Shown here one piece after another: positions 6,690 through 53,857 of a DNA stretch of 64,000 bases. The position numbers were made by a program, and so were the translations under genes. This stretch comes from Rhodanobacter panaciterrae (GTDB lineage Bacteria > Pseudomonadota > Gammaproteobacteria > Xanthomonadales > Rhodanobacteraceae). The stretch is from contig NZ_BMXT01000001.1 in assembly GCF_014651895.1 (NCBI RefSeq), positions 62,001-126,000 on the forward strand. Direction: 5' to 3'. The first letter of the stretch is position 1; each line of letters opens with the position of its first letter. A model generated the notes under the pieces. That model did no database searches and was not told the DNA's origin. It worked only from the letters and a program-made list of their open reading frames with translations.

Positions 6690-6735
6690 TGGAAGCGCCG
6701 GCACTCATGCATCGGTGCTACCCGGTGCTGCTGCG

Positions 6736-7224
6736 ATGACTCGCGCCGAGCTTCCGGTGCCGCGCATCGTGCTGGACACCAATGTGTGTCTGGACCTGTT
6801 CGTGTTCGGCGACTCGCTGTGCTCGCACGTGCTGGCGGCCATGCGCAGTGGGGCGGTGCAGGCGGTGACACGCGACGACTGCCGCGAGGAATGGCAGCGG
6901 GTGCTGCACTATCCGCAACTGCCGATCGACGATCGACAACGTCCGAGGTTCCGCGATGCTTTCGACGCGTTGATCCAGCTGCTGACGCCCGAAGCATCGA
7001 TGGTAGGCGAGGACGATCTTCCGCTGCCGCGCTGCGCCGACCCGGACGACCAGAAATTTCTGGAGCTGGCACTGGCGTCGGGTGCGCGTTGGCTACTCAG
7101 CAAGGACAAGGAACTGCTGAAGCTGGATCGCCGCACGCGCAGTGCCGGACTGTTTGCGATCCGCTTGCCGCAGTTGTGGTCGATCGCCGAGGTCCGATCG
7201 CTCCGAGCGCCTGAGCCCGGATGA
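6736..7224 (+). CDS. PIN-domain protein, putative toxin-type ribonuclease
   Basis: This protein is 162 residues from the ATG at 6736. The PIN active-site acids are in place: the first Asp in IVLDTNVCLDLF, an Asp/Glu group in TRDDCREEW, then CADPDDQKFLELA and a final LLSKDKELL. It fits the TIGR00305 'putative toxin component, PIN family' group. These proteins are metal-dependent nucleases by fold. No antitoxin-like gene is visible beside it, so a toxin role is not supported by context. A GTG at 6715 would add seven residues. Confidence 0.8.
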   Translation: MTRAELPVPRIVLDTNVCLDLFVFGDSLCSHVLAAMRSGAVQAVTRDDCREEWQRVLHYPQLPIDDRQRPRFRDAFDALIQLLTPEASMVGEDDLPLPRCADPDDQKFLELALASGARWLLSKDKELLKLDRRTRSAGLFAIRLPQLWSIAEVRSLRAPEPG

Positions 7225-17745: not shown

Positions 17746-19542
17746 TCAGCCTTGCTTGACGGTGTTCGCTGGCACGAAGGTATAACCCATCGTCTGCAGG
17801 CCCACGACGATCTGCTTCAGGTAGCTGATATCCAGGTAAGGATGGAAGAAGAAGCTCATTACACCGTCGGTAATCACCGTATTGCATTGCGCACTGGCCA
17901 AGATGTCGGCCGGAAAGCGCGGCGGATTGTGATTGGACGCGAGCAGCTCGACGTTGCCCAGGTTTTCCGGGATCACGTTGGAGCCGTAGATGTCGCGCAC
18001 GAGGTATGGGAAGAACTGGCCGTAGATGCGGGTGTAGTCCGGGGTGCCGGTGCCGCAGTTGCCATTCGGGCACCAGCCAACCGCATAGAGGCCGCGGTCA
18101 TAACGTGTGCCGAACATCTGCTGGAACACCTGGTAGTCCACGGCGGATGCGGCGTAGTGCGGCGGTTCGAAGATGGTCGGTGCCGACAAGCCGGCGGCGG
18201 CAAACACTGCTAGGCCGGAGTTGATACGACCGGATGCCCACAGGCCGGTGTCCTGCGGTGGGGGAGTGTCGTAGATGACATAGTTGTCGCTGCTGATATG
18301 CGACAGATAGAACTCGAAATCGTCCGCGCTCACTCCAGAGTAGGGATTGGCGACGTTCGAGTACTGGTGGGTGTAGCCATGCATGATCAGCGTGCCGCCT
18401 TTGGATTGCATGTACTTCAGCGCCGATACGATGCCTTTGACCTTGTTCAGGGGGACCGACATCGGTACGCCGTTGTTGTAGTAGCCGTTGGGATCGAGAT
18501 ACAGCGGGATCACTGCGACGCTGAAGGGTACGTGCACGCTGTACAGATAATCGGCGATCGCGCGTAGTGAATTCGGGTCATCCTCGGAGTTGACATCCTC
18601 GATCCGTACCAGCGCGCGCTTGCGTGCCTGCATGGCTGGATTGGAGACATTGCCGACCATGTCGATGGCGGCAAGGTAGCGATCGCTCATGCCGACATAG
18701 CTGAAGGGTACTTCGCCGATATAGGTGAGATTGCCCGAGCGGGTAGCCCAGTTGGAAACCACGCCGGTGTCCGAGGCAGTGCCGGTCGCGATGGCTTGCG
18801 CTTTGGTGGGGTCGGAGATCACCGTCTCCAGCAGACCCGAAGGTACCGCCAGCGGATCGCGCGTCAGTGTCACACCCTTGTAGGTCACACTAAGCGTGTT
18901 GCCGAAATCGAAGTAGCCGGGAGTCCAGCCGTACTGAGCGGTGAAGTTGCTGGCGCGCGCTGACAGCTGCCAGATATTGTCGTTCAGCCACAGCACCGGC
19001 TTGGTCGTGGCGAGTATGTCGTCCAGAAGCGCAGTGGGCAGCGGCTCTCCGTAGGTCGAGCCGACATAGATCAGGCCGGTATAACCGGCCAGTTCACCCG
19101 ACGTGTAATTTACAGCGGGCTGCAGGGTGTACTTGCTGCCATGCGAGACCAGGTTGCCGGCTTGTACACCATAGGCCTCACCCAGCCAGCCCCACGCGCC
19201 GGTAGTGTCGTAAAGCACCAGGGTGTTCTGGTTTGGATTTGCTCCCGGTGCACCGGGGTAGTGGTTCGATGGGGTTGCTGCCTGTTGCAGCGTCGACTTC
19301 ACCCGACTGGCTGCCGTCGAGAGGGTGGTCAGCGATCCCTTCGTCGGCAGTGTTGCGCTCGGCGGTGGTGGTGGCGCGGGAAGCATGCGGTGATCAGCAG
19401 GCCGTACGGCCGACACGGGCGCAAAGGCTGGCTGCGTTGCACTGGCGGCGGGCATCGAGCTGGCTGCTGCAACCAATACAAGTACTGCACTGGCGACGAG
19501 GGATTTGAGAGTCGACAGCCCGATAAGCGTTGACCTGGTCAT
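17746..19542 (-). CDS. Secreted DUF2334 (polysaccharide-deacetylase-like) protein
   Basis: This 598-residue exported protein begins with a signal peptide (residues of about 1-35), then a Pro-rich linker (APPPPPPSA near residue 60). A Rossmann-like part follows around residues 105-300. The DUF2334 core shows the metal-binding pattern of NodB-type carbohydrate esterases: RIEDVNSED at 313-321 and HGYTHQY at 388-394. The family is deacetylase-like by fold, and its activity is inferred. It is divergent from the wecB-nfrB-nfrA operon across a shared control region, which suggests it modifies the same polysaccharide in the periplasm or outside the cell. Confidence 0.85.
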   Translation of the reverse strand: MTRSTLIGLSTLKSLVASAVLVLVAAASSMPAASATQPAFAPVSAVRPADHRMLPAPPPPPSATLPTKGSLTTLSTAASRVKSTLQQAATPSNHYPGAPGANPNQNTLVLYDTTGAWGWLGEAYGVQAGNLVSHGSKYTLQPAVNYTSGELAGYTGLIYVGSTYGEPLPTALLDDILATTKPVLWLNDNIWQLSARASNFTAQYGWTPGYFDFGNTLSVTYKGVTLTRDPLAVPSGLLETVISDPTKAQAIATGTASDTGVVSNWATRSGNLTYIGEVPFSYVGMSDRYLAAIDMVGNVSNPAMQARKRALVRIEDVNSEDDPNSLRAIADYLYSVHVPFSVAVIPLYLDPNGYYNNGVPMSVPLNKVKGIVSALKYMQSKGGTLIMHGYTHQYSNVANPYSGVSADDFEFYLSHISSDNYVIYDTPPPQDTGLWASGRINSGLAVFAAAGLSAPTIFEPPHYAASAVDYQVFQQMFGTRYDRGLYAVGWCPNGNCGTGTPDYTRIYGQFFPYLVRDIYGSNVIPENLGNVELLASNHNPPRFPADILASAQCNTVITDGVMSFFFHPYLDISYLKQIVVGLQTMGYTFVPANTVKQG

Positions 19543-19689
19543 GGGGAATCCTCACTGCATTGTTGGGATTGGCGCGCAGTTACCGCGCGCATTGCTGTAA
19601 AAAACGCAATACACATCCCGAATGCCCAGGCCCCTGTCCCGTGAAAGGGACGCCTCGCCGTCCGTTGGCAAGCCTGCTTGCGACCGGAT

Positions 19690-19880
19690 TGCCCGGTCTC
19701 CTGTTTCATATTATAAATATAAAAATATGTCAATATCAACAACGCAAATATTCACCAATAATTATCGTTAATTTAACGTTGAGTTGGCAATATAGAACAT
19801 CAAGGCAGAATTTTTCGACTGCCGATACCGGCTGGACCACAGGTACTCCCTCCCCGCCCAATCGAGGCGCCTGCGGCTAG
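19690..19880. promoter_or_regulatory. AT-rich divergent control region of the nfr-like locus
   Basis: The stretch 19705-19800 is very AT-rich inside GC-rich DNA. A palindrome, CGTTAA-T-TTAACG, lies at 19766-19778. A possible plus-strand -10 element TATAGA is at 19791-19796, and a poor -35 (TTAATT, 19768-19773) overlaps the palindrome. A weak, activator- or repressor-controlled promoter for wecB is the simplest reading. Further down, at about 19680-19697, a GACCGG / CCGGTC hairpin lies in the leader of the divergent DUF2334 gene. All promoter calls are by eye. Confidence 0.45.
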
Positions 19881-19965
19881 CTGTTTGCAACTGAAACGAC
19901 AGGGGAAGGGCAGGATGCCCGTGGGGCAGGATTGTGTCGTCGTCCTGCGTGGGGGGAGGGAGCGC

Positions 19966-21078
19966 ATGCAGGATGTCCTGATCATCTGCGGCACGCGTCC
20001 GGAAATCATCAAGCTGGCGCCGCTGTATCACAGCCTGCGCGCCAGTGGGTGGGCGCAACCGCGCTGGTTGCATACCGGGCAACACGACGAGATGGCGCGT
20101 CAGATGCTTGCCTGTTTCGGCATTGTTCCCGACGTTTGGCTCGAGCGCGGTGGCGATGGGTTGAGCGAATTCAGTACGCGCTGCCGCACCCTGCTCGACA
20201 TGGTTATTTCAAGCGGAACATGGTCGCTGGTGGTGGTGCAGGGCGATACCGAGAGCGCCTTCCTCGGTGCGTTATGCGGTTTCTATCACCACGTTCCCGT
20301 TGCGCACGTCGAAGCCGGTCTGCGTACTTATGATCTGGAGCGGCCATTCCCCGAGGAAGGCCTGCGCCAGATGATCAGCCGCATCACCCGATTCCATTTC
20401 GCACCGACCGAGCGCGCTGCGCTGGCGCTGCGTGATGAGGCGATTGCGCTGGAGCGCATCTTCGTCACCGGCAATACCGTGATCGACGCGCAACACTGGG
20501 TGGTGCGGCACCACCGGATACAGCGTCGTGTGGAAAGTCGCGGTCACCTGTTGGTCACCGCGCATCGCCGTGAGAACTGGGGTAGCGACCTGCGCGAGAT
20601 CTGCTATGCGATCGCCGATGTCGCGAGTCGCCACCCGGAGTTGCAAGTGCTGTTTCCGGTACATCTCAATCCGGTGGTGGGTCAGCCTGTGCGCGCCATC
20701 CTCGGCGAGCTGGCCAACGTGCATCTCAGCCCCCCGTTCGACTATCTGGAGATGCAGCAGGCATTGATCGACTCCTGGCTGGTACTGACCGATTCCGGCG
20801 GCCTGCAGGAAGAAGCGCCCACCTTTGGCGTGCCGCTGCTGGTGCTGCGTACGGAAACCGAGCGGCCGGAGGCGATCGAGGCGGGCTGCGCCCGACTGGC
20901 CGGCACACAACGCGTGTCCATCGTGAGGCAGATCGAGGAGCTCTGGTCGGACCCGGCCGCGTACCAGTCGATGGCGCGCGCAGGCAATCCGTTCGGTGAT
21001 GGCCAAGCCAGCGTTCGGATCGTCAATCTGCTGCAGAACGCGTTGGCGTGCGACGAGCGCCTGCGTGCGGTGATTTAG
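19966..21078 (+). CDS. wecB: UDP-N-acetylglucosamine 2-epimerase (non-hydrolysing)
   Basis: This 370-residue cytoplasmic enzyme interconverts UDP-GlcNAc and UDP-ManNAc. The family landmarks are all readable: ICGTRPEIIKLAPLY at the N-terminus, GQHDE, VVQGDTESA, VAHVEAGLRTYDLERPFPEE, TAHRREN, FPVHLNP, LTDSGGLQEEAP and ETERPEA. The ATG at 19966 follows a strong GGGGGAGGG site. An earlier TTG in frame is not credible. No UDP-ManNAc dehydrogenase (wecC) is nearby, so ManNAc rather than ManNAcA is the likely product sugar. It is the first gene of the nfr-like operon and lies 19 bases before nfrB. Confidence 0.93.
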   Translation: MQDVLIICGTRPEIIKLAPLYHSLRASGWAQPRWLHTGQHDEMARQMLACFGIVPDVWLERGGDGLSEFSTRCRTLLDMVISSGTWSLVVVQGDTESAFLGALCGFYHHVPVAHVEAGLRTYDLERPFPEEGLRQMISRITRFHFAPTERAALALRDEAIALERIFVTGNTVIDAQHWVVRHHRIQRRVESRGHLLVTAHRRENWGSDLREICYAIADVASRHPELQVLFPVHLNPVVGQPVRAILGELANVHLSPPFDYLEMQQALIDSWLVLTDSGGLQEEAPTFGVPLLVLRTETERPEAIEAGCARLAGTQRVSIVRQIEELWSDPAAYQSMARAGNPFGDGQASVRIVNLLQNALACDERLRAVI

Positions 21079-21097
21079 CTAGCGAAGGAGACGCAAC

Positions 21098-23335
21098 ATG
21101 TGGTGGCTGGATGCATTCTCGACCTATCTCTACGGACTGAGCGTGGTCGTCACCGCGATCGCCATGCTGATGCTGGTCAGTGGGCTGGACGATTTGTTTA
21201 TCGACATCGTTTATTGGTCGCATCGGCTGTGGAAGTCGCTGTTCATCTACCGCAGGTACGAGCACACCGACTACCAGGAGCTGTACGGACCGGCTGAGAA
21301 GCCTCTGGCAATCATGGTGCCTGCCTGGCATGAAACCGGCGTGATCGGTCATATGGCCGAGCTGGTCGCGACGACGCTGGACTACGAGAACTATCACATT
21401 TTCGTCGGCACCTATCCGAACGATCCGGATACCCAGCGCGACGTCGACGAGGTGTGCGCGCGTTTTCCCAATGTGCACAAGGTCGTATGTGCGCGGCCGG
21501 GGCCGACCAGCAAGGCCGACTGCCTCAACAATGTGCTGGACGCGATCCTGCAGTTCGAGCGGCGCGCCCATATGACGTTCGAAGGCTTCATCCTGCACGA
21601 TGCCGAAGACGTCGTGTGTGAGCATGAGCTGCGGCTGTTCAACTATCTGGTTGGCCGCAAGGATCTGATCCAGATTCCGGTCTACCCGTTCGCGCGGCAG
21701 TGGAACAACTTCACCAGCCTGCATTACCTGGACGAGTTCGCGGAACTTCACGGCAAGGACGTGCCTGTACGCGAAACGCTGGCGGGGCAGGTGCCCAGCG
21801 CCGGTGTCGGTACCTGCTTCAGTCGGCGCGCCGTGCTCACGTTGATAGAGGCGGGCAACGGCATAGCGTTCGACGTGCAGAGTCTGACCGAGGATTACGA
21901 CATCGGTCTGCGCCTGAAGGCCTGGGGCATGGAGGAGATCTTCGTGCGCTTCCCGGTGCTGCGCCATCGGCGCCACCCTGAAGGTGAGAGCTGCCTGGGT
22001 CAGAGCTGGCGCGAGTCCAATGTGATCTGCGTGCGCGAATACTTCCCCGATCGCCTGATGACGGCGGTACGGCAGAAGTCGCGCTGGATCATCGGCATCG
22101 TCTACCAGGGCTACCGCACCCACGGTTGGAAACAGGGCCCGGTGCTCAATTACTTTCTGTGGCGTGATCGCAAGGGCGCGATCAACAACTTCGTCAGTTT
22201 TTCCGCGATGCTGATCCTGCTGCAGCTGATCTTGATCTGGCTGCTCCAGCAGGTGTGGACGGACGCGCCGCGCTTCGTCTCGATCTTCGAGGGGCGAGTG
22301 TGGTTCGACTACATACTGACGGCGAACATCGTGCTGATGGGCAACCGCATGCTGCAGCGGATCATCTTCGTGTCCGGCTACTACGGCGTGAAACAGGGGT
22401 TGCTGTCGATACCGCGGTTGTTGTGGGGCAACCTGATCAATTTCCTCGCCAACTGGCGTGCGATCCGCCAGATCATCAAGTGCGGCGATCCACGTCGCGT
22501 GGCCTGGGACAAGACGACCCACGACTTTCCCAGCATCAGCGGCGACAACCATGCCAAGCGCTCGCTCGAAGAGATACTCGTCGCGAACGGCATGGCATCG
22601 GAGCAGGCGTTGCACGAAGCGGAATTGCACCGTATCGACGGTCTGCAACTGGGCAGCTCGATGGTCCATGAAGGCCGGATCACGGCTGCGCAACTGGCCT
22701 GCTCGATCGCCGAACAGATCGGCGTAAGTTGCGAGTCGGTGGATCCGACCGGGTTGCCGCGCGATCTGCTGGGGGTGCTTCCGGCGCGCACGGCGCTGCA
22801 CTACGCGATACTGCCGCTGCGCCACGAAGGCCGCACGCTGGTTCTCGCCAGCGAGTGCTACATCGACCCGGTGTCGTTGGCCGCGATCGCGCGCCAACTC
22901 GGCCGGCCGGTGCGTTATGTGATCGCGCACAAGGGCCAGGTCACCGTCGGTCTGCGACGCTGGTACGCACACGCGTGCGACCACGATCGCGACCCGCACC
23001 ATTTGCTCGACATCGCGGCACGCAGCGGGCACCTTCATGGCAACCGCGTGGCGCTTGTGTGGGACAGCTATGTGTCGCGCCAGGTCATGCTGGGCGAGAT
23101 CCTGGTCGCGCAAGGTCACCTGGATGAAGTGGCATTCAGGTCATTGCTGTTGAGCCATGCGCGCAATCCTCAGCCACTGGGTGAATTCCTGGTCGAGCGG
23201 GGTGCGATCAGCCGCGAAATACTGGATCGCATGCTGGTTCTTCAGGCTGCACTGCAGCCAAGCATCGCCAATCTCCTGTTGAGGGAGGTCGCGGTGTCGG
23301 CGCAGCTGGCGACGCCGACGGAACAAGCGGCATGA
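21098..23335 (+). CDS. nfrB: NfrB-type inner-membrane glycosyltransferase with MshEN modules
   Basis: This 745-residue protein is a processive-looking family 2 glycosyltransferase fused to c-di-GMP-binding modules. Helices lie near residues 10-38, 366-385 and 403-455. Catalytic motifs are HDAED (167-171), LTEDYD (263-268) and QKSRW (326-330), as in membrane glycan synthases. After residue 488 comes an MshEN-like domain (SLEEILVANGMASEQAL, then LGSSMVHEGRITAAQL). A second pair of the same motif follows at 664-718 (LGEILVAQGHLDEVAF, LGEFLVERGAISREIL). In E. coli, NfrB is needed for phage N4 adsorption and was reported to make a secreted glycan under c-di-GMP control. Its stop overlaps the nfrA start. 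Confidence 0.92.
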   Translation: MWWLDAFSTYLYGLSVVVTAIAMLMLVSGLDDLFIDIVYWSHRLWKSLFIYRRYEHTDYQELYGPAEKPLAIMVPAWHETGVIGHMAELVATTLDYENYHIFVGTYPNDPDTQRDVDEVCARFPNVHKVVCARPGPTSKADCLNNVLDAILQFERRAHMTFEGFILHDAEDVVCEHELRLFNYLVGRKDLIQIPVYPFARQWNNFTSLHYLDEFAELHGKDVPVRETLAGQVPSAGVGTCFSRRAVLTLIEAGNGIAFDVQSLTEDYDIGLRLKAWGMEEIFVRFPVLRHRRHPEGESCLGQSWRESNVICVREYFPDRLMTAVRQKSRWIIGIVYQGYRTHGWKQGPVLNYFLWRDRKGAINNFVSFSAMLILLQLILIWLLQQVWTDAPRFVSIFEGRVWFDYILTANIVLMGNRMLQRIIFVSGYYGVKQGLLSIPRLLWGNLINFLANWRAIRQIIKCGDPRRVAWDKTTHDFPSISGDNHAKRSLEEILVANGMASEQALHEAELHRIDGLQLGSSMVHEGRITAAQLACSIAEQIGVSCESVDPTGLPRDLLGVLPARTALHYAILPLRHEGRTLVLASECYIDPVSLAAIARQLGRPVRYVIAHKGQVTVGLRRWYAHACDHDRDPHHLLDIAARSGHLHGNRVALVWDSYVSRQVMLGEILVAQGHLDEVAFRSLLLSHARNPQPLGEFLVERGAISREILDRMLVLQAALQPSIANLLLREVAVSAQLATPTEQAA

Positions 23336-26247
23336 AACGGTCATGGCCGAGCCGATGTGCCATGGCGCTGTTCGTGATGGCACCTGCGTGGCCGCTCCAT
23401 GCGGCAGGCCAGGAACCGGTCGCCGACAGCAGCCGCTACCGGCAGTTCATGGTCTATCCGCATCGTCAGGCCGGTTATGCGGCCATGCGTGCCGGCGATG
23501 AGCGCGTCGCGATGGCGGAGTTCATGCGCGCACGCGCGCTGGCACCGCAGAGTATCGACACCGCCCTGGATCTGGTCGAGGCCTATCGGCATTTCGGTCA
23601 CGCGGCGCAAGCGCAGAAGTTGCTGGACGAACAACATCGCTACACGCCGAACGATCCACGCCTGCGAGCCGCTCAATCCGTTGCCGCGCCATCGGCGGTG
23701 GACTGCAGTCGCGACGGCAGGCCGGTATGCCGCGCCCAGCGCGGCTTCGACGACTTGCAGGCGGGCAATCTGGCCAAGGCGCAGGCAGAACTCGATGCCC
23801 CGGATTTCGCGCGCAGTCCCGAAGGCCGTTCCTTGCGTCATGCACTGGTTCAGCGCGCGATTTACCTCGGCGACCGTCAGCGCGCCGACGCGCAACTGGC
23901 TGAGCTGGATGCCAACGACAAGCTCAGTGCCGATGAGCGCAGCCAATGGTTCAATCTGCTGCTTCAGCTCGGCAAGCTGGATGCGGCGCGTCAGCTGCAA
24001 TCGCGTGGCGGGCTGGATGCGCCGGCGCAGGACCTGGCCATGGCTCAGGCCATCGCCAACCACAGCGATCGCAAAGGGCTGGCCGCCTACATGGCGTCCC
24101 GCCAACCTGCATTCACCACCGAAAAAGACGAGCGGCAATGGGTGAATCTGCTCGCGTCGGTGGCGCACGATCGACCGGAGCTGTTGGCCCGTTATGCCTC
24201 GCGCTATCCCGCCAACGCGGTGTTGCAGGCGCGGCTTTCGGTGCCGTTGGCGATGGCGCGCGGCGACAGCGCGATGGCGCAACGCATGTTGTCGCGCTTG
24301 CCGGATGGCAGCTTTCGCGAGGATCGTTTCAGCCTGGATCTGCAGCAAGGTCGGTATGCCGAAGCCAGCCAGCAGGCCGAGCTACTGATCGCCCAGCCGG
24401 AGGGCTACCGTCTGCTCGATCCGCTCAGCTACCGCTTGATGGAGGCCGGTGCGCGTGGTGAGGCAAAACAACTGCTGTTGGCGGCGTACCCGTTTGCCGG
24501 CAACCCGGGTTCGGCGGCCCTGTTCTCTCGCCTGGCGGTGCTGGCTGGCGAGCAGCCGGCGTTGTTTTCATCCGATGATCGCGTACGCCTGCGGCGGCCG
24601 CTGGAAAGCGTGCCGCTGCGCATGGCGCAGGTCGCCATCCTTGGCGCGTTGCACGATTGCGATGGCATCCGCCAGGTGATGATTGACCTCTCACCGAACT
24701 ATTCCGCCGAACAGTGGCGGCAGCTCGGCGATTGCTACGGCAACGACCGGCCCGGTCTTGCCGAATACGCTTACGCCGAGGCCAACAAGCGCAAGCCTGA
24801 CAGCGACACCACTCGGGCATTGGCCTATCAGGCCTATAGTGCGCAGGACTATGCAACGGCCTTGCAGGTCTGGCGTTCGATACCGGTGGTGCACATGCAG
24901 TCGGCCGATTTGCTGGCCGCCGCGACCACCGCGCTCACCGTCGACGACCCGGCCGTCGCGCGCTCCTGGCTGGATACGTATGCAGCGCAGGGCGGCCAAC
25001 GGGATCACACGTATTGGTGGTTGCGCGCGCAAGCCGACGATCCGCGTGATCCGGCGCTGGCCCGTGCGGATCTGGAAAACGCCGTGGCCATGCATCCCGA
25101 TCCGCGTTATTACGCGCGCCTGGCGGCTTTGCAAAGTCAGGCCGGCGAGGCGCAGCAGGCGCTGGTTTCATTGCAGCGTGCCAGTGCGCTCGCGCCCAAC
25201 GACAGCAAGCTGGCTGCCGCGTTGGGCTACGCCTACCTGCAAGTCGGTGCGCCGGACAAGGCGATGGTGCAGTTCGAGCGCGCGCACCAGGCCAACCCGG
25301 ACGACCCGGCTTTGACCCGGCAATTGCTGTACGTGCATCAGCAGCTTGGCGACAGCGCACAGGCGCGCACGTATGCAGCGCTGGCGATCGACCAGCTCGG
25401 TCCCATCGACGCCCCCGGCACCGGGAGCAGCGACAGCACGGCGCAGGAAGACGAGGACCAGCAGCGCTATACCCTGCGGCGCCTGCACGAAGATCTCGGC
25501 CGCCAGTGGCGCTTCAATGCCGACATGACCCTGGGCGATACGGTGTCCTCGGCGGCCAACACGGCGGCGCCGGGCGTTTCCTATCGCAGCTATCTGCAAC
25601 TCGAAGCGCAATACCGCTTTGATCCGCATCTCACCGGCGGCGATGCCAATACGCTGGCCGCCTACGCACGCGTGTTCGCCGGTAGCGGAGCCAGCGGCTC
25701 GGTGTGGCCGATGCATGCGCCAATGCTGGGCGTGGGCCTGCACTGGAAACCGCTTCTTTCGCAGAACGTTGTGTTGTCGATCGAGCAGCAAACACCCGTC
25801 GGCAACAGCCGCGACACCCGCAACGACACCATGCTGCGAGCCAGCGGATCGTGGTCCTTCAGTCCACGGCTGAGCGACGACTGGCACGCGACCGGACCAA
25901 GTTGGTTCACCCAGAACTTCTACGTCGACATCGCCCGCTATCTGCGTGCGAGGCAGACCGTGTTCACGGTGGACTACCAGCTGGGCTGGCAGCGCAAACT
26001 GATCGACGGCCAGACCATTGAGCCCTATGCCCATGTGCAATACACCGGCATCGACCGTGCGCATGGCGCGGGCTATGCGCGTGACGCACGCCTCGGCGTC
26101 GGCCTGCAGTGGAACCTGTGGTACGGCGAAACCCGCTACGACGCCTACCCGCACCGCTTCAGCATCGCGGTGGAAGGGCAGCACGCCTTCACCAGTTATC
26201 TGCACGAGAACAATGCGGTGTTCCTGATCGCGAGGACGCAGTGGTGA
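23332..26247 (+). CDS. nfrA: NfrA-type TPR/beta-barrel outer-membrane protein (phage N4 adsorption protein A family)
   Basis: This 971-residue protein has a signal peptide (residues of about 1-25, ending PLHAAG) and a long helical region to about residue 690 built of TPR-like repeats (for example GYAAMRAGDERVAMAEFMRA and ALGYAYLQVGAPDKAMVQFE). Its C-terminal part is rich in amphipathic beta strands and ends FLIARTQW, an aromatic C-terminus typical of outer-membrane barrels. E. coli NfrA (about 990 residues) is the outer-membrane receptor for phage N4 and the likely export pore for the NfrB glycan. The ATG overlaps the nfrB TGA by four bases, so the two are translationally coupled. Confidence 0.9.
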   Translation: MKRSWPSRCAMALFVMAPAWPLHAAGQEPVADSSRYRQFMVYPHRQAGYAAMRAGDERVAMAEFMRARALAPQSIDTALDLVEAYRHFGHAAQAQKLLDEQHRYTPNDPRLRAAQSVAAPSAVDCSRDGRPVCRAQRGFDDLQAGNLAKAQAELDAPDFARSPEGRSLRHALVQRAIYLGDRQRADAQLAELDANDKLSADERSQWFNLLLQLGKLDAARQLQSRGGLDAPAQDLAMAQAIANHSDRKGLAAYMASRQPAFTTEKDERQWVNLLASVAHDRPELLARYASRYPANAVLQARLSVPLAMARGDSAMAQRMLSRLPDGSFREDRFSLDLQQGRYAEASQQAELLIAQPEGYRLLDPLSYRLMEAGARGEAKQLLLAAYPFAGNPGSAALFSRLAVLAGEQPALFSSDDRVRLRRPLESVPLRMAQVAILGALHDCDGIRQVMIDLSPNYSAEQWRQLGDCYGNDRPGLAEYAYAEANKRKPDSDTTRALAYQAYSAQDYATALQVWRSIPVVHMQSADLLAAATTALTVDDPAVARSWLDTYAAQGGQRDHTYWWLRAQADDPRDPALARADLENAVAMHPDPRYYARLAALQSQAGEAQQALVSLQRASALAPNDSKLAAALGYAYLQVGAPDKAMVQFERAHQANPDDPALTRQLLYVHQQLGDSAQARTYAALAIDQLGPIDAPGTGSSDSTAQEDEDQQRYTLRRLHEDLGRQWRFNADMTLGDTVSSAANTAAPGVSYRSYLQLEAQYRFDPHLTGGDANTLAAYARVFAGSGASGSVWPMHAPMLGVGLHWKPLLSQNVVLSIEQQTPVGNSRDTRNDTMLRASGSWSFSPRLSDDWHATGPSWFTQNFYVDIARYLRARQTVFTVDYQLGWQRKLIDGQTIEPYAHVQYTGIDRAHGAGYARDARLGVGLQWNLWYGETRYDAYPHRFSIAVEGQHAFTSYLHENNAVFLIARTQW

Positions 26248-27167
26248 GGTCTGCGCTGTGCTGGCTGATAGCACTGCTGTTGTGGGTGCCATGGTTGGCC
26301 GGTGCGACCACGGCGATCTTCTACCAGCCGCAGCTGCGCGACCGCGAGGTCGCGCAGGCGCAATGGCCATCGGTGTTTGCACAAGTGCGCGCGCGTGGCT
26401 TCGATACGCTGGTGGTGCAGTGGACCCAGGACGGCGATGCGTTCGGCGACCCTGCCGGACATGCATGGTTGCTGCAGCGGGTACACGAGGCACACGCTGC
26501 CGGTTTGCGTATCGTGCTGGGGCTCTACAACGATCCTGCGTTCTTTCATCGGCTGGAAGTGGAGGCGTTGCAAAAAACGCAGCTGGCAGTGCCGGACGAC
26601 TACCTGCCCGGGCTGTTACGCCACAACGCCGAGGTCGCCCGACGCTGGGGCGCCGACCTTGGCGGCGAAGCGATTGCTGGCTGGTATTTGCCGATCGAGA
26701 TCGACGACATGCACTGGCGCAGTCCTGCCGCGCGCAAGCAGTTGGAGCATTACCTTGCCGCGGAGCGGCGCCAACTGGATGGCATCGCACAACGGCCGGT
26801 CTACGTAACCTCGTTCTTCAGAGGCAATATGACGCCATCGCGCTATGCCGAGCTGCTCAGCGACGTTCAGCGCAGTGGCGTGCGTGTCTGGGTGCAGGAC
26901 GGCGCGGGTATCGCGAGTGCCGAGGGTCTGGAGGGCGGCGTGCGTGCGCTGTATCTCGGGGCGGTAAGCCAGTGTGCGAGTCCGCATGTGCACGGGATTA
27001 TCTACGAAATCTTCCGCCAGACCGGCAAGGACGCGGCGTTCACTGCTGCGGCTTTGCCTGCTGTCGAAGCGAGTGCGGCATTGGCGCAACGAACCCCGTG
27101 TGGGGGCGACAGTGTCTTCTTCGAGCTGGGTTACCTGCCTGAGATGGCGGGAGTGTTGCGGCGCTAG
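26244..27167 (+). CDS. DUF4434 exported protein
   Basis: This 307-residue protein begins with GTG at 26244, overlapping the nfrA stop as GTGA. That start yields an export signal (residues of about 4-20, ending WLAGA). DUF4434 proteins have a TIM-barrel-like fold related to glycoside hydrolases. Visible blocks include TAIFYQPQLRD, FDTLVVQWTQDGDAF, LRIVLGLYNDPAFF, IAGWYLPIEIDDMHW and RVWVQDGAG. The acidic IEIDD pair could be catalytic. As the last gene of the operon it may trim or process the exported glycan. E. coli carries a third nfr gene, ybcH, in a similar position, but I cannot confirm homology. Confidence 0.8.
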   Translation: MRSALCWLIALLLWVPWLAGATTAIFYQPQLRDREVAQAQWPSVFAQVRARGFDTLVVQWTQDGDAFGDPAGHAWLLQRVHEAHAAGLRIVLGLYNDPAFFHRLEVEALQKTQLAVPDDYLPGLLRHNAEVARRWGADLGGEAIAGWYLPIEIDDMHWRSPAARKQLEHYLAAERRQLDGIAQRPVYVTSFFRGNMTPSRYAELLSDVQRSGVRVWVQDGAGIASAEGLEGGVRALYLGAVSQCASPHVHGIIYEIFRQTGKDAAFTAAALPAVEASAALAQRTPCGGDSVFFELGYLPEMAGVLRR

Positions 27168-27177
27168 CCACGAAAGA

Positions 27178-27210
27178 AAAAAAGCGCCTCCATCAGGAGG
27201 CGCTTTTCTA
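27178..27210. terminator. Bidirectional rho-independent terminator
   Basis: An 11-bp stem, AAAGCGCCTCC / GGAGGCGCTTT, with a 4-base loop is flanked by an A-run on its left and a T-run on its right. It therefore can terminate the nfr-like operon (+) and the convergent glycoside-hydrolase gene (-). Confidence 0.9.
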
Positions 27211-27265
27211 TTTTCAAGAGCGATTGCGCAAGGTAACCGATCTATCGCATGGAGCGGTCGCTGGT

Positions 27266-28243
27266 TTACTGCGGCACTTTCAGCGGAGCAATCGTCTGAT
27301 TGAGTGTGGTCCAGTACGCCTTGGTGTACGGAACCATTTGCTCGGCGTAATTCCACCAGAAGAAACCACCGACAAACCGCGGGTTCTTGATGGTGTTGAC
27401 CATCGGGTAGTACGTCTTGATCAGGTTGGTCTGCACCGACGTGGGCGCGCTGGTGCTCGACGTGCCGATCTCGCCGAAGCCGAGCCTGGCGTTCGGGAAG
27501 ATGCTCCCCAGTGCGCTGAAATCGGTCTCCCACGAGGGCGACAGTCCCGGGCAATCCTGGTACGGGTAATAGCTGAAGAATGCGTAGTCGGCGCCCAGGC
27601 GCACCGCGGCGGGCAGGAAGGTGGTGGGCCAGGTCTTCCAGTAATCCTGCGACTTCTCCCAGCAATTGGTGCCCTTGCTGTCGTCGTTGTAATAGAGCGT
27701 GATGGCTGTCTTGCCGCCAACGCCCTTCACGATCGTGTTGGCAGCGGCGACCATCTGCCCGATGGCAGTCTCCTGGGCGTTGACCGTGGTGTTGTTGCCG
27801 TTCGGATTCGGTCGCAGCCATTCGCCATTGATCTCGTTGGCGATCTCCCACACGTCGACCGTACCGTTCAGGCCGTAGACCAGTTCCTTGGTGCGCGCCG
27901 TATAGGTGTTGATGTCAGTCGGGAAGTAGTACGAGTCCATGATCTCGCCCATCACGTTGGCCACCGTGTGCAGCTTGACCAGCGCGGGGTAGTACTCGGC
28001 GGCGGTGGTGCCTGGGTCGAACACCACGCGGACCGTGGGCTTGTACGGCAGCTTGGTCAGCGACGTGACGATCGCATTGATGTTGGACAGGTCATCCAGG
28101 GTGACGCCGTAGATCGGTGCCTTGAGCGTTGTCGCTGCCTGCGCATGCGCGTTCGAAGCGAGCGGTGCGGCGGCGGCATAGAGCGCGATGGATGCGGCAA
28201 GTGGAGCCAGAAAGGTCTTTGCGACGGTTGCAAGATTTGTCAT
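27266..28243 (-). CDS. Secreted glycoside hydrolase, clan GH-A-like
   Basis: This 325-residue exported protein has a signal peptide to about residue 34 (SNAHA). The rest reads as a TIM barrel. The candidate acid/base Glu is in WEIANEING (E137, an NE motif at the end of strand 4) and the candidate nucleophile is in GFGEIG (E258), the two-glutamate spacing of clan GH-A. FFWWNYAE near the C-terminus fits an aromatic substrate-binding strand. I cannot place it in a numbered family. It is convergent with the nfr-like operon and shares its terminator, which suggests it acts on the same or a related polysaccharide. Confidence 0.72.
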   Translation of the reverse strand: MTNLATVAKTFLAPLAASIALYAAAAPLASNAHAQAATTLKAPIYGVTLDDLSNINAIVTSLTKLPYKPTVRVVFDPGTTAAEYYPALVKLHTVANVMGEIMDSYYFPTDINTYTARTKELVYGLNGTVDVWEIANEINGEWLRPNPNGNNTTVNAQETAIGQMVAAANTIVKGVGGKTAITLYYNDDSKGTNCWEKSQDYWKTWPTTFLPAAVRLGADYAFFSYYPYQDCPGLSPSWETDFSALGSIFPNARLGFGEIGTSSTSAPTSVQTNLIKTYYPMVNTIKNPRFVGGFFWWNYAEQMVPYTKAYWTTLNQTIAPLKVPQ

Positions 28244-50051: not shown

Positions 50052-51551
50052 ATGAACCAGGCTGTCGAGACAAGCGCCGCACCGAGCTATCCGCAGATGC
50101 TCGGCCATCCGCGTCCGTTGTGGATGCTGTTCATGACCGAGTTCTGGGAGCGCTTCGCGTTCTACAGTGTGAGCTGGGCGCTGGCGCTGTACATCGTGGC
50201 GCATTTCTACAACGGCGACGCCTCCGGCCAGGCCTGGGCCAGCAGCATCTTCGGTGCGTATACCGCACTCATCTACGCCTCCAGCATCTTCGGCGGCTAT
50301 GTGGCGGACAAGGTCATCGGCTACCAGCGCTCGATCCTGCTCGGTGCGCTGGTGATGGCGCTCGGCTTGTTCGTCGTCATGCTGCCGAGTCGCGAAATCT
50401 TCCTGGTCGGCCTGGCGATGGTGATCGTCGGCAACGGACTGTTCAAACCGAACATCTCCACCATGGTCGGGCAGCTGTATGGACGGGATGACCCGCGTCG
50501 CGATCGCGGCTTCACCTTGTTCTACATGGGCATCAACGGCGGTGCGTTGCTGGCGCCGCTGCTGACCGGCTGGATGGCCGGTTATTTCACCGACACGCCG
50601 ATGCAGCAGAACTACCGGATCGTGTTCGGCGCTGCCGGCGTCGGCATGCTGCTTAGCCTGCTGTGGTTCTGGTTCGGACGACGCGGACTGCAGGGCGTAG
50701 GTCGGCCAGCGCCGGAGGCTGCCGGCCGGATGCGCGTGGTGTGGGTGTTGCTGGGCATGATCGTCGCGGTGCCGCTGGTGTATCTGCTGCTGGCGTTTGT
50801 CACCACCGGACTGTCATGGATGCTGGGCGTGCTGTTCGCCGGCGTGGCCGTGATGCTGCTGGTCGAGGCAGTCCGGCACGGGCGGGTACAGGTGGATCGC
50901 GTGGTGGCGATGCTGATCATCTTCGCCTTCAATATCCTGTTCTGGATGTTCTATTTCCAGCTCGGCACGTCATTCAATTTCCTGGCGGAGAACCTGGTCG
51001 ACCGGCAGATGTTCGGCGGCTGGACATTCCCGGTCGGCTGGTTCCAGTCGGTGAGTCCGCTGGCGATCATCGTGCTGGCACCGGTCGTCACCGTGGTCTG
51101 GAGTCTTCTGGCGGCGCGCAAAAACGAGCCGTCGATCCCGCGCAAGTTCGGCCTCGGCCTGGTCTTCAACGGACTGGGTTTCGCGGTGCTGATGTATGCC
51201 TTGTCGCGACTGCTCGGTGCGTCTGGGCTGATTCCGTTCTGGCCGCTGGTGCTGTGCTACGTGCTGCAGACCGTGGGCGAGCTGTGCCTGTCACCGATCG
51301 GGCTATCGATGGTGACCAAACTGGCGCCGCCGCGGCTGGTCGGTCTGGCGATGGGTGGCTGGTTCCTGTCGCTGGCGGTGGGCGGCAACCTGTCCGGCCT
51401 GCTCGCCGGACATATCAGTGGCGACAGCGGTATGACCGCCGCCTCGGCATTGAGCGGCTTCACTTTCAGCTTCTGGCTGCTGGCCGGCTCGGGTGTGCTG
51501 TTGTTGCTGATCTCGCCGTTGATCAACAAGCTGATGCACGGCGTGCGCTGA
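50052..51551 (+). CDS. POT-family peptide/H+ symporter (copy 1)
   Basis: This 499-residue protein has about 14 membrane helices and the proton-dependent oligopeptide transporter signatures. These are the helix-1 FWERFAFYSVSWALALYIV (ExxERF-type), GGYVADKVIGYQRSILLGA, GNGLFKPNISTMVGQLY and the PTR2 motif FTLFYMGINGGALLAPLL. It imports di- and tripeptides with protons. It is strongly similar to copy 2 at 54762 across its whole length. In helix 1, Ser replaces the Gly that follows Tyr in copy 2 (FYSV versus FYGM). Confidence 0.9.
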   Translation: MNQAVETSAAPSYPQMLGHPRPLWMLFMTEFWERFAFYSVSWALALYIVAHFYNGDASGQAWASSIFGAYTALIYASSIFGGYVADKVIGYQRSILLGALVMALGLFVVMLPSREIFLVGLAMVIVGNGLFKPNISTMVGQLYGRDDPRRDRGFTLFYMGINGGALLAPLLTGWMAGYFTDTPMQQNYRIVFGAAGVGMLLSLLWFWFGRRGLQGVGRPAPEAAGRMRVVWVLLGMIVAVPLVYLLLAFVTTGLSWMLGVLFAGVAVMLLVEAVRHGRVQVDRVVAMLIIFAFNILFWMFYFQLGTSFNFLAENLVDRQMFGGWTFPVGWFQSVSPLAIIVLAPVVTVVWSLLAARKNEPSIPRKFGLGLVFNGLGFAVLMYALSRLLGASGLIPFWPLVLCYVLQTVGELCLSPIGLSMVTKLAPPRLVGLAMGGWFLSLAVGGNLSGLLAGHISGDSGMTAASALSGFTFSFWLLAGSGVLLLLISPLINKLMHGVR

Positions 51552-51658
51552 CGCTTTGTACGATTCATCGTAAGTTTTTGCTGTTGTCGGGGTGGTTCAA
51601 ACAGCAGAAGATGCTGTGCGGCTTGATTTCACAACGGTCGTTCCTCAGGGGGACAAAC

Positions 51659-53857
51659 ATGGCATCAAATTTCGGGGCGCGATTGCGTCCTTGCGTGCAG
51701 TTGCGTGTGTCGAAAGCATGGAGGGTCATTGTCGCAACGCTGTTATTCGGGTGCCTGGTGAATTTCGCCCATGCGGCACCCGCGCGTTACCAGGTGATCA
51801 TGCAGTTTCCGAATGCCGACGGACTGGGTGCGGCGGGTTTTGGTTTTGCCATCGCACCCAACGGCACTATGTACGGCACGTTTGGGTCTGGGGGTGGGAT
51901 GTACGGCTTAGGCGGTATTTATTCGGTGAGCCCATCAGGCGTATTTACCGATGTTCACGACATGGGCCTGTACGAAGGGTCCCAGCAACTTCCAGGTGGT
52001 AGTCGTGCCAGCGTCCCCTTCGTTCAATCGGTTGGTTTGACGAGCGACGGTAGCGTGTATGGGACGACTTATGCCGGAGGCCCGTATACCGATCCCGTAA
52101 ATGGCCCGCAGCCGCAGGGTACGATATTCAAGCTTTCCCCGGATGGCCAGTTCACTACATTGCATACGTTTTACGGCAACACCCTTAGCACGAGCGATGG
52201 GGCGACGCCGATGGGTGTGACGCTCGGACCGGACGGCAACTACTACGGATTCACGCTGTACGGGGGAGGCACCAACGGTTCCAACGGCGGAACTATCTTT
52301 CAGTTAACGCCGGGTGGTCAGGAAAAAATCATCTACAGTCTTTATGGCCCTGGCAACAACGCGACGAGTTTTTTGGTGGGCTCGGATGGCAACATTTATG
52401 GATCCCTGCTGGCTGGATCACAACTGACCTACAACGGGGCACCACTTACCGCCGACGTGCTGTTCAAGCTCACAGTGGACGGCAACCTGTCGGTGATCCA
52501 CCAATTTGCTAGCGCGGTCGATGGCACCAGGGTGAGCCACCTGATTCAGGGTGTGGATGGAAACTTCTACGGAACTACGACGGGTGGCGGTGCGAACGGG
52601 TTCGGGACGGTCTTCGAGCTCGATCAAACGGGCACGTTTTCCGTCCTGCATTCATTCGACAATACCGTAAAGCAGGAAGGCTTTTCCGCCGGTCCGTTGG
52701 TGCAAGGCACGGACGGAAATCTATATGGTTCAACCACTCTCGGTAGCCTGAATGGCTTGGGTGCCGTATACAAGCTGGCTCCCGACGGCGTGTTCACTCT
52801 CCTGCAGAAAATTGACGGCACGGCGGCCAACGGCGGGTCCCCTTCCACCATCGTTCAATCCGGGCCGCGGACGTTCTATGGTACGGCGGGCGGGGGGCTC
52901 ACAACGCCTAATCCATCGGGGGTCTACAAGCTGGTTGTGCCCGTGCATGATGACGTCACCGCAGTCGGTCGAGCTAGTGTGCTGGCCAGTGGCCCGGGTG
53001 TTTTTTCGACGACGCTCATTACTACAGCCGGTGCAACCCAAGGCGCGTCGCTGGCGATTGCAGCCGGTTATTACCCGGCTGCAATCGGCGACTTCAATGG
53101 TGACGGCGTGACGGATATCGTATGGACCAGCGCCAACAATGATCTGTACATCTGGTTTGGCAGTGCCAGTGGATACACATCGAAATACGCCGGCACTTAT
53201 CCGGTCGGTTGGAGTGTAGTAGGCGCGGGCGATATCGATGGCGATGGCAAGGACGATCTGCTGTGGGTCGACAACCACGCACACGAATTCGCCTACTGGG
53301 TTATGGATGGCACCACGCGCACTGGCTATCGGATCTTCAACATCACGCCAGGTTATTACCCAGCGGCTATCGGTGACTTCAATGGCGATGGCAAGTCGGA
53401 CGTGTTGTGGACCAGTGCGAACAACGATCTTTACATGTGGCTCAGCACCGGCAGTGGCTTCACTTCGAAATACATCACCACGTATCCAGCCAGTTGGAAG
53501 GTAGTGGGACGTGGTGATCTCGATGGCGACGGCCGCGACGATCTCGTCTGGCAGACCAAAGACGGTGTTAGCTGGGGTTATTGGCTGATGAACGGTGCAT
53601 CCATCGAAAAAATTGTCAGTCTGAGTGTGCCCGTGCAAGTTGCCGGCTACACCATTGCTGCAACTTCAGACTACAACGGAGATGGCGTTGCCGACATCGT
53701 CTGGTCGAACGGGAGCGATCTCGTGCTGTGGTCAAATCTGGGACAGTGTTCCGTCATGGTGGTATGTACATTCAGCGCCTCCACCGGTCCGATCTCGGTT
53801 CCGGCGGGAGAGGCCATTTTCAATAGCGGTATCCCGTTGTCAGTAACCACTCAGTGA
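51659..53857 (+). CDS. Secreted GloVer-repeat / FG-GAP-repeat protein
   Basis: This 732-residue exported protein has a signal sequence (residues of about 20-39, ending NFAHAA). Its N-terminal two thirds are GloVer (Gloeo_Verruco) repeats, such as VQGTDGNLYGSTTLGSLNG and IQGVDGNFYGTTTGGGANG, a beta-propeller-like fold. The C-terminal 230 residues hold FG-GAP/VCBS-like calcium-binding repeats (IGDFNGDGVTDIVWTSANND, IGDFNGDGKSDVLW, DYNGDGVADIVW). Such proteins are adhesins or surface proteins by association. AGGGGG precedes the ATG. It lies between two transporter copies and has no functional tie to them. Confidence 0.85.
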   Translation: MASNFGARLRPCVQLRVSKAWRVIVATLLFGCLVNFAHAAPARYQVIMQFPNADGLGAAGFGFAIAPNGTMYGTFGSGGGMYGLGGIYSVSPSGVFTDVHDMGLYEGSQQLPGGSRASVPFVQSVGLTSDGSVYGTTYAGGPYTDPVNGPQPQGTIFKLSPDGQFTTLHTFYGNTLSTSDGATPMGVTLGPDGNYYGFTLYGGGTNGSNGGTIFQLTPGGQEKIIYSLYGPGNNATSFLVGSDGNIYGSLLAGSQLTYNGAPLTADVLFKLTVDGNLSVIHQFASAVDGTRVSHLIQGVDGNFYGTTTGGGANGFGTVFELDQTGTFSVLHSFDNTVKQEGFSAGPLVQGTDGNLYGSTTLGSLNGLGAVYKLAPDGVFTLLQKIDGTAANGGSPSTIVQSGPRTFYGTAGGGLTTPNPSGVYKLVVPVHDDVTAVGRASVLASGPGVFSTTLITTAGATQGASLAIAAGYYPAAIGDFNGDGVTDIVWTSANNDLYIWFGSASGYTSKYAGTYPVGWSVVGAGDIDGDGKDDLLWVDNHAHEFAYWVMDGTTRTGYRIFNITPGYYPAAIGDFNGDGKSDVLWTSANNDLYMWLSTGSGFTSKYITTYPASWKVVGRGDLDGDGRDDLVWQTKDGVSWGYWLMNGASIEKIVSLSVPVQVAGYTIAATSDYNGDGVADIVWSNGSDLVLWSNLGQCSVMVVCTFSASTGPISVPAGEAIFNSGIPLSVTTQ

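What the first reader, a model, noticed from the sequence alone, without database searches (positions are those of the whole stretch)
17746..28243. An extended Nfr-type c-di-GMP-controlled exopolysaccharide locus with added secreted enzymes
Seen: wecB, nfrB, nfrA and a DUF4434 gene are translationally coupled (nfrB/nfrA overlap ATGA, nfrA/DUF4434 overlap GTGA). They are flanked by a divergent secreted DUF2334 protein with NodB-like metal motifs and a convergent secreted GH-A-like hydrolase. Known, from memory: in E. coli, NfrA, NfrB and WecB are needed for phage N4 adsorption, and NfrB was reported to make a c-di-GMP-dependent ManNAc-containing glycan. Inference: this cluster makes a poly-ManNAc-type glycan that is deacetylated, trimmed or cleaved by the three extra secreted enzymes, none of which I know to be assigned to the pathway. 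The wecC gene is absent, which favours ManNAc over ManNAcA.
Basis: partly seen in the sequence, partly recalled or inferred. Interest (0 to 1): 0.85.

Follow-up and report, generated by a model that had tools for sequence, protein, structure and literature searches.

The report
Extended Nfr exopolysaccharide locus with deacetylase
This soil-bacterium relative of the E. coli Nfr sugar-coat machinery carries two further secreted proteins, a predicted deacetylase and a predicted sugar-chain cutter, which travel with the machinery in several distant bacterial groups and probably reshape the sugar chain that it makes.

Summary
The genes are as described. The core wecB-nfrB-nfrA-ybcH is known: NfrB, NfrA and the DUF4434 protein are 62, 38 and 42% identical to E. 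coli NfrB, NfrA and YbcH, and YbcH is a published member of that operon, so not an extra. New are the DUF2334 and GH-A-like proteins.

In 137 sampled genomes of the family, NfrB, DUF2334 and GH occur in the same 15; 122 show none. In 3 of 15 the GH is on another contig. The three genes also lie together in five Ralstonia-group loci, one Myxococcales MAG and one Holophagaceae MAG. In most actinobacterial loci DUF2334 sits near wecB and another GT2.

DUF2334 models as a CE4-like enzyme with invariant Glu-Asp and HxxxH; the GH as a barrel with an invariant Glu pair, nearest GH26.

Best reading: a beta-linked ManNAc polymer is de-N-acetylated by DUF2334 and cut by the GH, as in PNAG or Pel systems. 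Chemistry is untested. The first MshEN glycine is lost in 16 of 17 clade NfrBs, so c-di-GMP control is unproven. Searches found no paper linking DUF2334 to Nfr.

The parts
17746..19542 (-). DUF2334 protein, 598 aa, signal-peptide-like N-terminus (by eye), N-terminal domain of no assigned family (about 105-305) and CE4/NodB-like domain (Pfam match 309-579); predicted polysaccharide deacetylase
   Evidence: PF10096 E 4.1e-56; model pLDDT 84.9, Foldseek top hits CE4-type deacetylases; invariant E315 D316 H388 H392 P461 H462 in 46-row alignment A2, H567 in at least 90%
19543..19965 (.). 423-bp divergent intergenic region between DUF2334 and wecB; promoter-like site on - strand 19739-19710 (11 of 12)
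   Evidence: 4 promoter-like sites in the 12.5-kb region against 2.9 expected, so weak
19966..21078 (+). wecB, UDP-GlcNAc 2-epimerase (UDP-ManNAc supply)
   Evidence: TIGR00236 393.5 bits; PF02350
21098..23335 (+). nfrB, processive GT2 synthase with MshEN-type C-terminus
   Evidence: 62% identity to E. coli NfrB over 737 aa, catalytic D168, TED (D266), QxxRW conserved; MshEN PF05157 37.8 bits
23332..26247 (+). nfrA, TPR outer-membrane export porin; ATGA overlap with nfrB
   Evidence: NfrA_C 143.9 bits; 38% identity to E. coli NfrA
26244..27167 (+). ybcH (DUF4434), signal-peptide-like N-terminus (by eye), GTGA overlap with nfrA; glycosidase-like TIM-barrel clan (recalled), with invariant E152 and E255
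   Evidence: PF14488 94 bits; 41.5% identity to E. coli YbcH; invariants in 25 rows, 19 of them distinct genomes
27178..27209 (.). two-way intrinsic terminator between convergent ybcH and GH genes
   Evidence: 12-14 bp stem with T-rich tails on both strands
27266..28243 (-). Secreted-looking clan GH-A-like glycoside hydrolase, 325 aa; predicted acid/base E137 (WExxNE), nucleophile E258
   Evidence: invariant in 17-row alignment A1 incl. Ralstonia-group and Myxococcales rows; model pLDDT 83.5, 8 barrel strands; best PDB fold GH26 2bv9 E 2.2e-7

Best explanation
A synthase-dependent exopolysaccharide locus of the Nfr/NGR type with its own polymer-processing enzymes. WecB makes UDP-ManNAc; NfrB, an inverting processive GT2 enzyme, polymerises it into a beta-linked ManNAc-containing chain while passing it through the inner membrane; NfrA's TPR domain and porin carry it across the outer membrane. 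The secreted DUF2334 protein removes part of the N-acetyl groups, giving positively charged mannosamine units, and the GH-A-like enzyme cuts the chain (length control, release, or clearing of the periplasm). YbcH is an inner-membrane-anchored or periplasmic helper, possibly a second barrel hydrolase. Shown here: gene content, homology, predicted folds, conserved catalytic residues and co-occurrence of DUF2334 and GH with NfrB. Inferred: the sugar, the linkage, both enzyme activities, and activation by c-di-GMP through MshEN motifs.
For: Core homology to E. coli nfrBA-ybcH. The same 15 of 137 sampled genomes of the family hold NfrB, DUF2334 and GH, 122 hold none at the thresholds used; the same 7 genomes of 220 sampled from the order. 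GH on another contig in 3 of the 15 (G067, G607, G590) yet still present; in all three it lies at least 29 kb from the contig ends, so adjacency alone does not explain it. Other lineages: NfrB-NfrA-WecB-DUF2334-GH on one strand in 5 of 5 Ralstonia-group loci; in L122 DUF2334 and GH overlap by GTGA or lie 2 bases apart, depending on the GH start; GH-DUF2334-NfrB in one Myxococcales MAG (L108/L166); GH divergent from DUF2334-NfrB in one Holophagaceae MAG (L169). Of the best 80 DUF2334 loci (190 relatives found), 67 have WecB and 71 an NfrB (26) or the actinobacterial GT2 (45) in the stretch held. CE4-like fold and motifs; GH-A barrel with Glu pair, GH26 nearest. Chemical fit (recalled knowledge, not tested): in beta-ManNAc the acetamido group is cis to the leaving group, so neighbouring-group catalysis is not possible and a Glu nucleophile is expected. 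PMC8669469 (passages) reports wecB-like genes beside nfrB wherever no other wecB pathway exists.
Against: No enzyme activity, glycan structure or mutant is available. E315 stands where CE4-type enzymes have the Asp base (Agd3 D377, PelADA D262), so activity could differ or be lost. GH fold matches are weak (best TM 0.57/0.64, 13% identity). E. coli makes NGR with no such gene beside the operon and is not among the 7 of 14 control genomes that ring for DUF2334 (the GH was not searched in E. coli). Ten of the 17 NfrB genomes of the order sample (38-47% identity) have neither protein, among them two NfrB-NfrA-YbcH loci (L043, L044). Nine of the 80 DUF2334 loci show neither WecB nor synthase (four of them on stretches under 14 kb, two being second copies). 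The GH was hit in only 15 of 43 DUF2334 genomes searched, three of those weakly. In two of three Myxococcales MAGs, and for extra copies in the two Ralstonia-group genomes looked at and in a Holophagaceae MAG, the GH lies away from Nfr genes.
Confidence: 0.68

Rival explanations
1. The DUF2334 and GH proteins are pathway parts but with other chemistry: DUF2334 is an O-deacetylase, a deacetylase of another residue, or a binding/export scaffold with a dead site, and the GH is a periplasmic clean-up enzyme.
For: Glu instead of Asp at the CE4 base position in all 46 rows; no PDB sequence match for P0001 or P0005; no Pfam family over cut-off for P0005; a CE4 pseudoenzyme (BA3943, 7bkf) and its mutants are among the fold hits.
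Against: Metal-site D316, H388 and H392 are invariant and H567 nearly so over 46 sequences from several phyla, which is unlike a decayed site; the GH Glu pair is invariant in 17 rows.
Confidence: 0.2
2. The polymer is not poly-ManNAc: NfrB of this clade uses another sugar nucleotide, or ManNAc is one of two sugars, and DUF2334/GH act on that other polymer.
For: The NGR structure is unsolved in E. coli too (PMC8669472, PMC8669469, passages); the own genome has a second wecB.
Against: wecB is in the operon and lies in the stretch in 67 of 80 DUF2334 loci, including Rhodanobacteraceae, Ralstonia-group and Actinobacteria; E. coli wecB and wecC mutants shift motility in opposite ways (PMC8669469).
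Confidence: 0.15
3. DUF2334 and GH are unrelated secreted enzymes (chitin or peptidoglycan turnover) that happen to be co-transferred with nfr as a block.
For: By gene direction and the terminator they are separate transcription units in the window, and presence in the family is patchy, as expected for a block that moves.
Against: GH retained though on another contig in 3 of 15 genomes; different gene orders in four lineages, with DUF2334 and GH directly joined in Ralstonia-group L122.
Confidence: 0.05

Closest known systems
E. coli nfrBA-ybcH / NGR pathway with WecB (NfrC)
   Same: NfrB GT2-MshEN synthase, NfrA porin, YbcH; WecB supplies UDP-ManNAc; gene order nfrB-nfrA-ybcH
   Different: No DUF2334 or GH gene beside the E. 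coli operon; E. coli wecB is in the ECA operon; first MshEN Gly kept in E. coli
PNAG system PgaABCD, with PgaB (deacetylase domain plus hydrolase domain; title and start of abstract of PMC5933820 seen in listing)
   Same: Deacetylase and hydrolase acting on an amino-sugar polymer; GT2 synthase and TPR porin (recalled)
   Different: Deacetylase and hydrolase are one protein; the sugar is GlcNAc; no epimerase (recalled)
Pel (PelA, CE21), B. cereus PelADA (CE26) and fungal Agd3 (CE18)
   Same: Metal-dependent de-N-acetylases with additional domains, metal Asp-His-His and His acid (PMC13254593, PMC7229062, passages)
   Different: GalNAc-containing polymers; Agd3 and PelADA not among the 50 Foldseek hits shown; no sequence match to PDB
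GH26 and other clan GH-A families
   Same: TIM barrel, Asn-Glu after beta-4, Glu on beta-7 (clan features recalled)
   Different: 13% identity, no family model over cut-off; substrate unknown
Achromobacter and Simplicispira nfr clusters with acetyltransferase genes
   Same: Nfr loci with added polymer-modification genes (PMC8669472, PMC8669469, passages)
   Different: In what was read they add acetylation, not DUF2334/GH; their loci were not examined here

Membership tests
Nfr/NGR exopolysaccharide system | NfrB GT2 with DxD, TED, QxxRW | tested here: met
   D168, D266, Q326-R329-W330 aligned; NF008411 score is just under its cut-off (1122.7 of 1170)
Nfr/NGR exopolysaccharide system | NfrA TPR plus NfrA_C porin, adjacent and overlapping | tested here: met
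   the full-length model NF007302 is under its cut-off (643 of 1223)
Nfr/NGR exopolysaccharide system | WecB available | tested here: met
   19 bases upstream of nfrB
Nfr/NGR exopolysaccharide system | c-di-GMP-binding MshEN motifs | tested here: inconclusive
   first Gly is Glu here; motif 2 Gly519 and a second pair at E. coli positions 664 and 693 are Gly
Nfr/NGR exopolysaccharide system | ManNAc-containing surface glycan | not testable with these tools
   needs glycan analysis; only proposed in E. coli as well
CE4-like (NodB) polysaccharide deacetylases | NodB-type barrel | tested here: met
   the first 36 of 50 listed hits (66 at E<=0.001) are CE4-type proteins, counting ArnD and three entries of a CE4 pseudoenzyme; TMt up to 0.73, 8-15% identity
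CE4-like (NodB) polysaccharide deacetylases | Metal triad Asp-His-His and C-terminal His | tested here: met
   D316, H388, H392 invariant, H567 in at least 90% of 46 rows; metal binding itself not tested
CE4 proper | Asp-Asp in motif 1 (base plus metal) | tested here: not met
   E315-D316 in all 46 rows
CE18 (Agd3) / CE26 (PelADA) | Sequence or fold match to Agd3 or PelADA | tested here: inconclusive
   no PDB sequence match at E<=1; neither among the 50 fold hits shown, but more hits exist and the PelADA entry may postdate the library
Clan GH-A | 8-strand barrel, Asn-Glu after beta-4, Glu on beta-7 | tested here: met
   features recalled
GH26 | Family-level sequence similarity | tested here: not met
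   no Pfam or NCBIfam match above cut-off, no PDB sequence match at E<=5

The most novel reading that the evidence does not exclude
Nfr-type loci of several phyla make a so far undescribed class of cationic exopolysaccharide, a partly de-N-acetylated beta-mannosaminan, matured by a new carbohydrate esterase family (long DUF2334) and a new GH-A family of endo-beta-(N-acetyl)mannosaminidases. Host deacetylation could also alter a phage receptor, since WecB-dependent phages that use NGR carry glycan deacetylase tailspikes (PMC8669472, passage). The monoderm form is GT2-wecB-DUF2334 in Actinobacteria.
Probability: 0.35. Interest if true: 0.8.

Novelty: new variant of a known kind. Interest (0 to 1): 0.62.

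Why it matters
NGR is a broadly used phage receptor whose structure and function are unsolved (PMC8669472, PMC11990801, passages). Two conserved partner enzymes would give direct handles: a deacetylase predicts the charge and modification of the polymer, and a hydrolase, if specific, would be a tool to detect, digest and sequence the glycan. It would also give a first function to a DUF2334 subfamily and extend wecB-linked polymer synthesis with a dedicated deacetylase to Actinobacteria, Myxococcales and Holophagaceae.

Tried and rejected
c-di-GMP riboswitch or other RNA leader: in the locus no Rfam family reached E 1 except two far under their gathering scores, at the terminator, judged chance; in the whole window only the tRNA passed gathering. 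Shared promoter motif: divergent intergenic regions of 16 genomes were aligned; the part printed shows little conservation; GH upstream stretches of 12 genomes were cut out but not analysed. PDB sequence searches for DUF2334, GH and YbcH: no hit. Agd3/CE18 kinship considered, not supported so far. Class-level NfrB survey: 7 of 369 genomes at E<=1e-60, too sparse for neighbourhood counts. Mantel tests show congruent distances of NfrB, WecB, GH and DUF2334 in 13 Rhodanobacteraceae (r 0.76-0.95, 0 of 999 permutations in each of six pairs), but shared descent alone gives this, so it is not counted as proof.
Full report
WHERE. The window is 64 kb of a 3.46-Mb, 12-contig, 99.9% complete genome. It is in the same genus as handle G145, whose contig C6 equals in length and gene place NZ_FRCH01000005.1 of Rhodanobacter sp. 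OK091. So the organism is a Rhodanobacter-like member of the Rhodanobacteraceae; the name is an inference from that match.

OBSERVATION. All six genes exist as described. wecB starts most likely at ATG 19966. nfrB and nfrA overlap by ATGA, nfrA and the DUF4434 gene by GTGA; wecB and nfrB are 19 bases apart. The DUF2334 gene is divergent from wecB across 423 bp. The GH gene is convergent with the DUF4434 gene, with a strong two-way terminator between them (27178-27209). By gene direction and spacing there are three transcription units: wecB-nfrB-nfrA-ybcH, DUF2334, and GH.

THE CORE IS KNOWN. BLASTP to E. coli K-12 gives 62% (NfrB), 38% (NfrA) and 41.5% (YbcH) identity. NfrB keeps the catalytic Asp residues, TED and QxxRW. 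All three score under the cut-offs of the NCBIfam full-length models drawn around the E. coli-type proteins (1122.7 of 1170, 643 of 1223, 272 of 344), as fits diverged orthologues. PMC8669469 (passages read) describes nfrB-nfrA-ybcH as an operon, YbcH as a probably inner-membrane-anchored periplasmic protein, dispensable for N4 infection and only partly needed for the motility effect, and reports wecB-like genes beside nfrB wherever no other wecB pathway exists. PMC8669472 (passages read) proposes NGR as a ManNAc polymer and reports Achromobacter nfr clusters with O-acetyltransferase and BcsB genes. So DUF4434 is not an unassigned extra; DUF2334 and the GH are.

CO-OCCURRENCE. In a sample of 220 genomes of the order, NfrB (E<=1e-100) occurs in 17; seven of these, all in the window's family, are at 71-100% identity. 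Exactly those seven hold the DUF2334 protein and exactly those seven hold the GH (both E<=1e-8). The other ten NfrB genomes (38-47% identity) have neither. In 137 sampled genomes of the family: NfrB in 15, DUF2334 in 15, GH in 15, the same 15 handles, in 6 of 26 genera; 122 genomes have none at these thresholds. In the window's own genus seven listed genomes lack all three. DUF2334 lies 1.5-1.8 kb from nfrB in all 15; wecB lies between in the seven whose stretch was fetched. Related genomes are not independent, so no probability is given; patchy genera and the GH copies elsewhere speak against simple hitch-hiking.

OTHER LINEAGES. A pattern-based scan of the GTDB genome collection with the DUF2334 protein found 190 relatives; the best 80 were kept, so what follows describes those 80. 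Profile searches in these stretches found WecB in 67, NfrB (over 400 bits) in 26 and an actinobacterial GT2 (over 100 bits, profile built from the Actinoplanes-type neighbours) in 45, one or the other synthase in 71; nine had neither synthase nor WecB, four of them on stretches under 14 kb and two being second copies in genomes that also have a linked copy (L053, L125). The GT2 next to wecB in L076 matches PF13641/PF13632. In the five Ralstonia-group loci (four labelled Ralstonia, one 'Burkholderiaceae bacterium 26') the order is NfrB-NfrA-WecB-DUF2334-GH on one strand. In L122, the only one read at base level, nfrB and nfrA overlap by ATGA, and the GH starts at a GTG inside the DUF2334 stop or at an ATG 2 bases after it. 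In a Myxococcales MAG (L108/L166) the order is GH-DUF2334-NfrB on one strand; in a Holophagaceae MAG (L169) the GH is divergent from DUF2334-NfrB with WecB nearby. A GH profile search in 43 genomes (from 45 of the 80 loci; 2 not held) hit 15: three Rhodanobacteraceae, five Ralstonia-group, three Myxococcales MAGs, one Holophagaceae MAG and three weak actinobacterial-type hits (83-94 bits); the other 28, mostly Actinobacteria but also Sorangium, a second Holophagaceae MAG and a Limisphaerales MAG, had none. Against tight linkage: in the other two Myxococcales MAGs, for second copies in the two Ralstonia-group genomes looked at, and for a second Holophagaceae copy, no Nfr gene lies within the 17-19.5 kb fetched. 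The GH thus goes mainly with diderm, NfrB-type systems, but not always beside them.

WHAT THE TWO PROTEINS LOOK LIKE. DUF2334: AlphaFold model mean pLDDT 84.9; the first 36 of 50 listed fold hits are CE4-type proteins, counting ArnD and three entries of a CE4 pseudoenzyme (best E 5.1e-7, TMt up to 0.73, 8-15% identity), presumably aligned to the C-terminal domain, which is also where Pfam places DUF2334 (309-579); the N-terminal domain (about 105-305) has no assigned family. Invariant in 46 sequences: R313, E315, D316, H388, H392, R439, P461, H462; H567 in at least 90%. This fits a metal site D-H-H with a C-terminal His acid, but the residue before the metal Asp, where CE4-type enzymes have an Asp base, is Glu. 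GH: model mean pLDDT 83.5 with eight barrel strands; invariant E137 in WExxNE after strand 4 and E258 on strand 7 in 17 rows; best fold GH26 lichenase 2bv9, E 2.2e-7, TM 0.57/0.64, 13% identity; other barrels, also non-glycosidases, follow closely. Neither has a sequence relative in the PDB. Both have signal-peptide-like N-termini by eye. YbcH keeps E152 and E255 in all 25 rows (19 distinct genomes), so it too could be a barrel hydrolase; its fold was not modelled.

MECHANISM. From recalled knowledge: GT2 synthases invert, so UDP-alpha-ManNAc gives beta-linked ManNAc. In beta-ManNAc the acetamido group is cis to the leaving group, so it cannot act as the nucleophile; a retaining enzyme then needs its own Glu, which is what the GH-A pair offers. 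A deacetylase plus a hydrolase is usual equipment of PNAG and Pel systems (PgaB, title and start of abstract; PelA and PelADA). The reading is therefore: synthesis by NfrB, partial de-N-acetylation by DUF2334, cutting by the GH, export by NfrA. None of these activities has been shown here.

c-di-GMP. In E. coli G491L abolished and G519S partly abolished N4 killing (PMC8669472). The Gly491 position is Asp/Glu in 16 of 17 distinct clade NfrBs (G115 keeps Gly) and Gly519 is kept in 15 of 17, while a second motif pair (E. coli positions 664 and 693; Ala and Gly in E. coli) is Gly-Gly in all 17 (22 clade rows, five genomes present twice). NCBIfam's c-di-GMP motif model matches the window NfrB in two stretches. 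Binding may have moved to the second pair, or been weakened; this is a guess.

LITERATURE. DUF2334 with polysaccharide: 0 papers; DUF2334 alone: 1, a marine metagenome study, listing only; DUF4434: 0; nfrB with deacetylase: 4, two of them on nfrB of E. coli (passages read) and two from other fields, listing only; wecB, nfrA and glycoside hydrolase: 0; N-acetylmannosamine, exopolysaccharide, deacetylase and c-di-GMP: 8, listing only except PMC8669472; N4 glycan receptor: 5, listing, passages of PMC11990801, PMC10743462, PMC8669472 and PMC8669469. The library holds open-licence papers only, so absence from it is weak evidence.

VERDICT. New variant of a known kind.

Noticed in passing
window 21098-23335 (NfrB residues 486-537 and about 660-710): First MshEN motif glycine (E. 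coli Gly491) is Asp/Glu in 16 of 17 clade NfrBs while a second C-terminal motif pair is Gly-Gly in all 17; the c-di-GMP site may have shifted.
   Followed up: partly
L037:3177-6885 (G184); G630:C5:155412-157187; L053: Extra copies of the DUF2334 gene: a tandem pair beside nfr in one genome, second copies away from nfr in two others.
   Followed up: no
L161:8763-9758 and L162:8513-9508: Two Ralstonia-group genomes carry a second GH copy with no Nfr gene within 19 kb, scoring higher to the GH profile (475 and 495 bits) than the copies in their Nfr loci (407 and 402).
   Followed up: partly
window 50052-51551, 54762-56270 and 54405-54567: Two POT-family peptide transporter paralogues in direct order (74-83% DNA identity in four blocks) plus a short stretch resembling the end of a further copy.
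   Followed up: no
window about 51640-53857 (+): Secreted-looking protein with four repeats of FG-GAP/VCBS appearance in a lower-GC stretch between the two transporters; family name recalled, not searched.
   Followed up: no
window 6715-7224: PIN_3 domain protein, 67 bits; no partner antitoxin looked for.
   Followed up: no
L076:7262-11455: Actinobacterial GT2-wecB-DUF2334 clusters, a possible monoderm form of the pathway, in most of the actinobacterial loci.
   Followed up: partly
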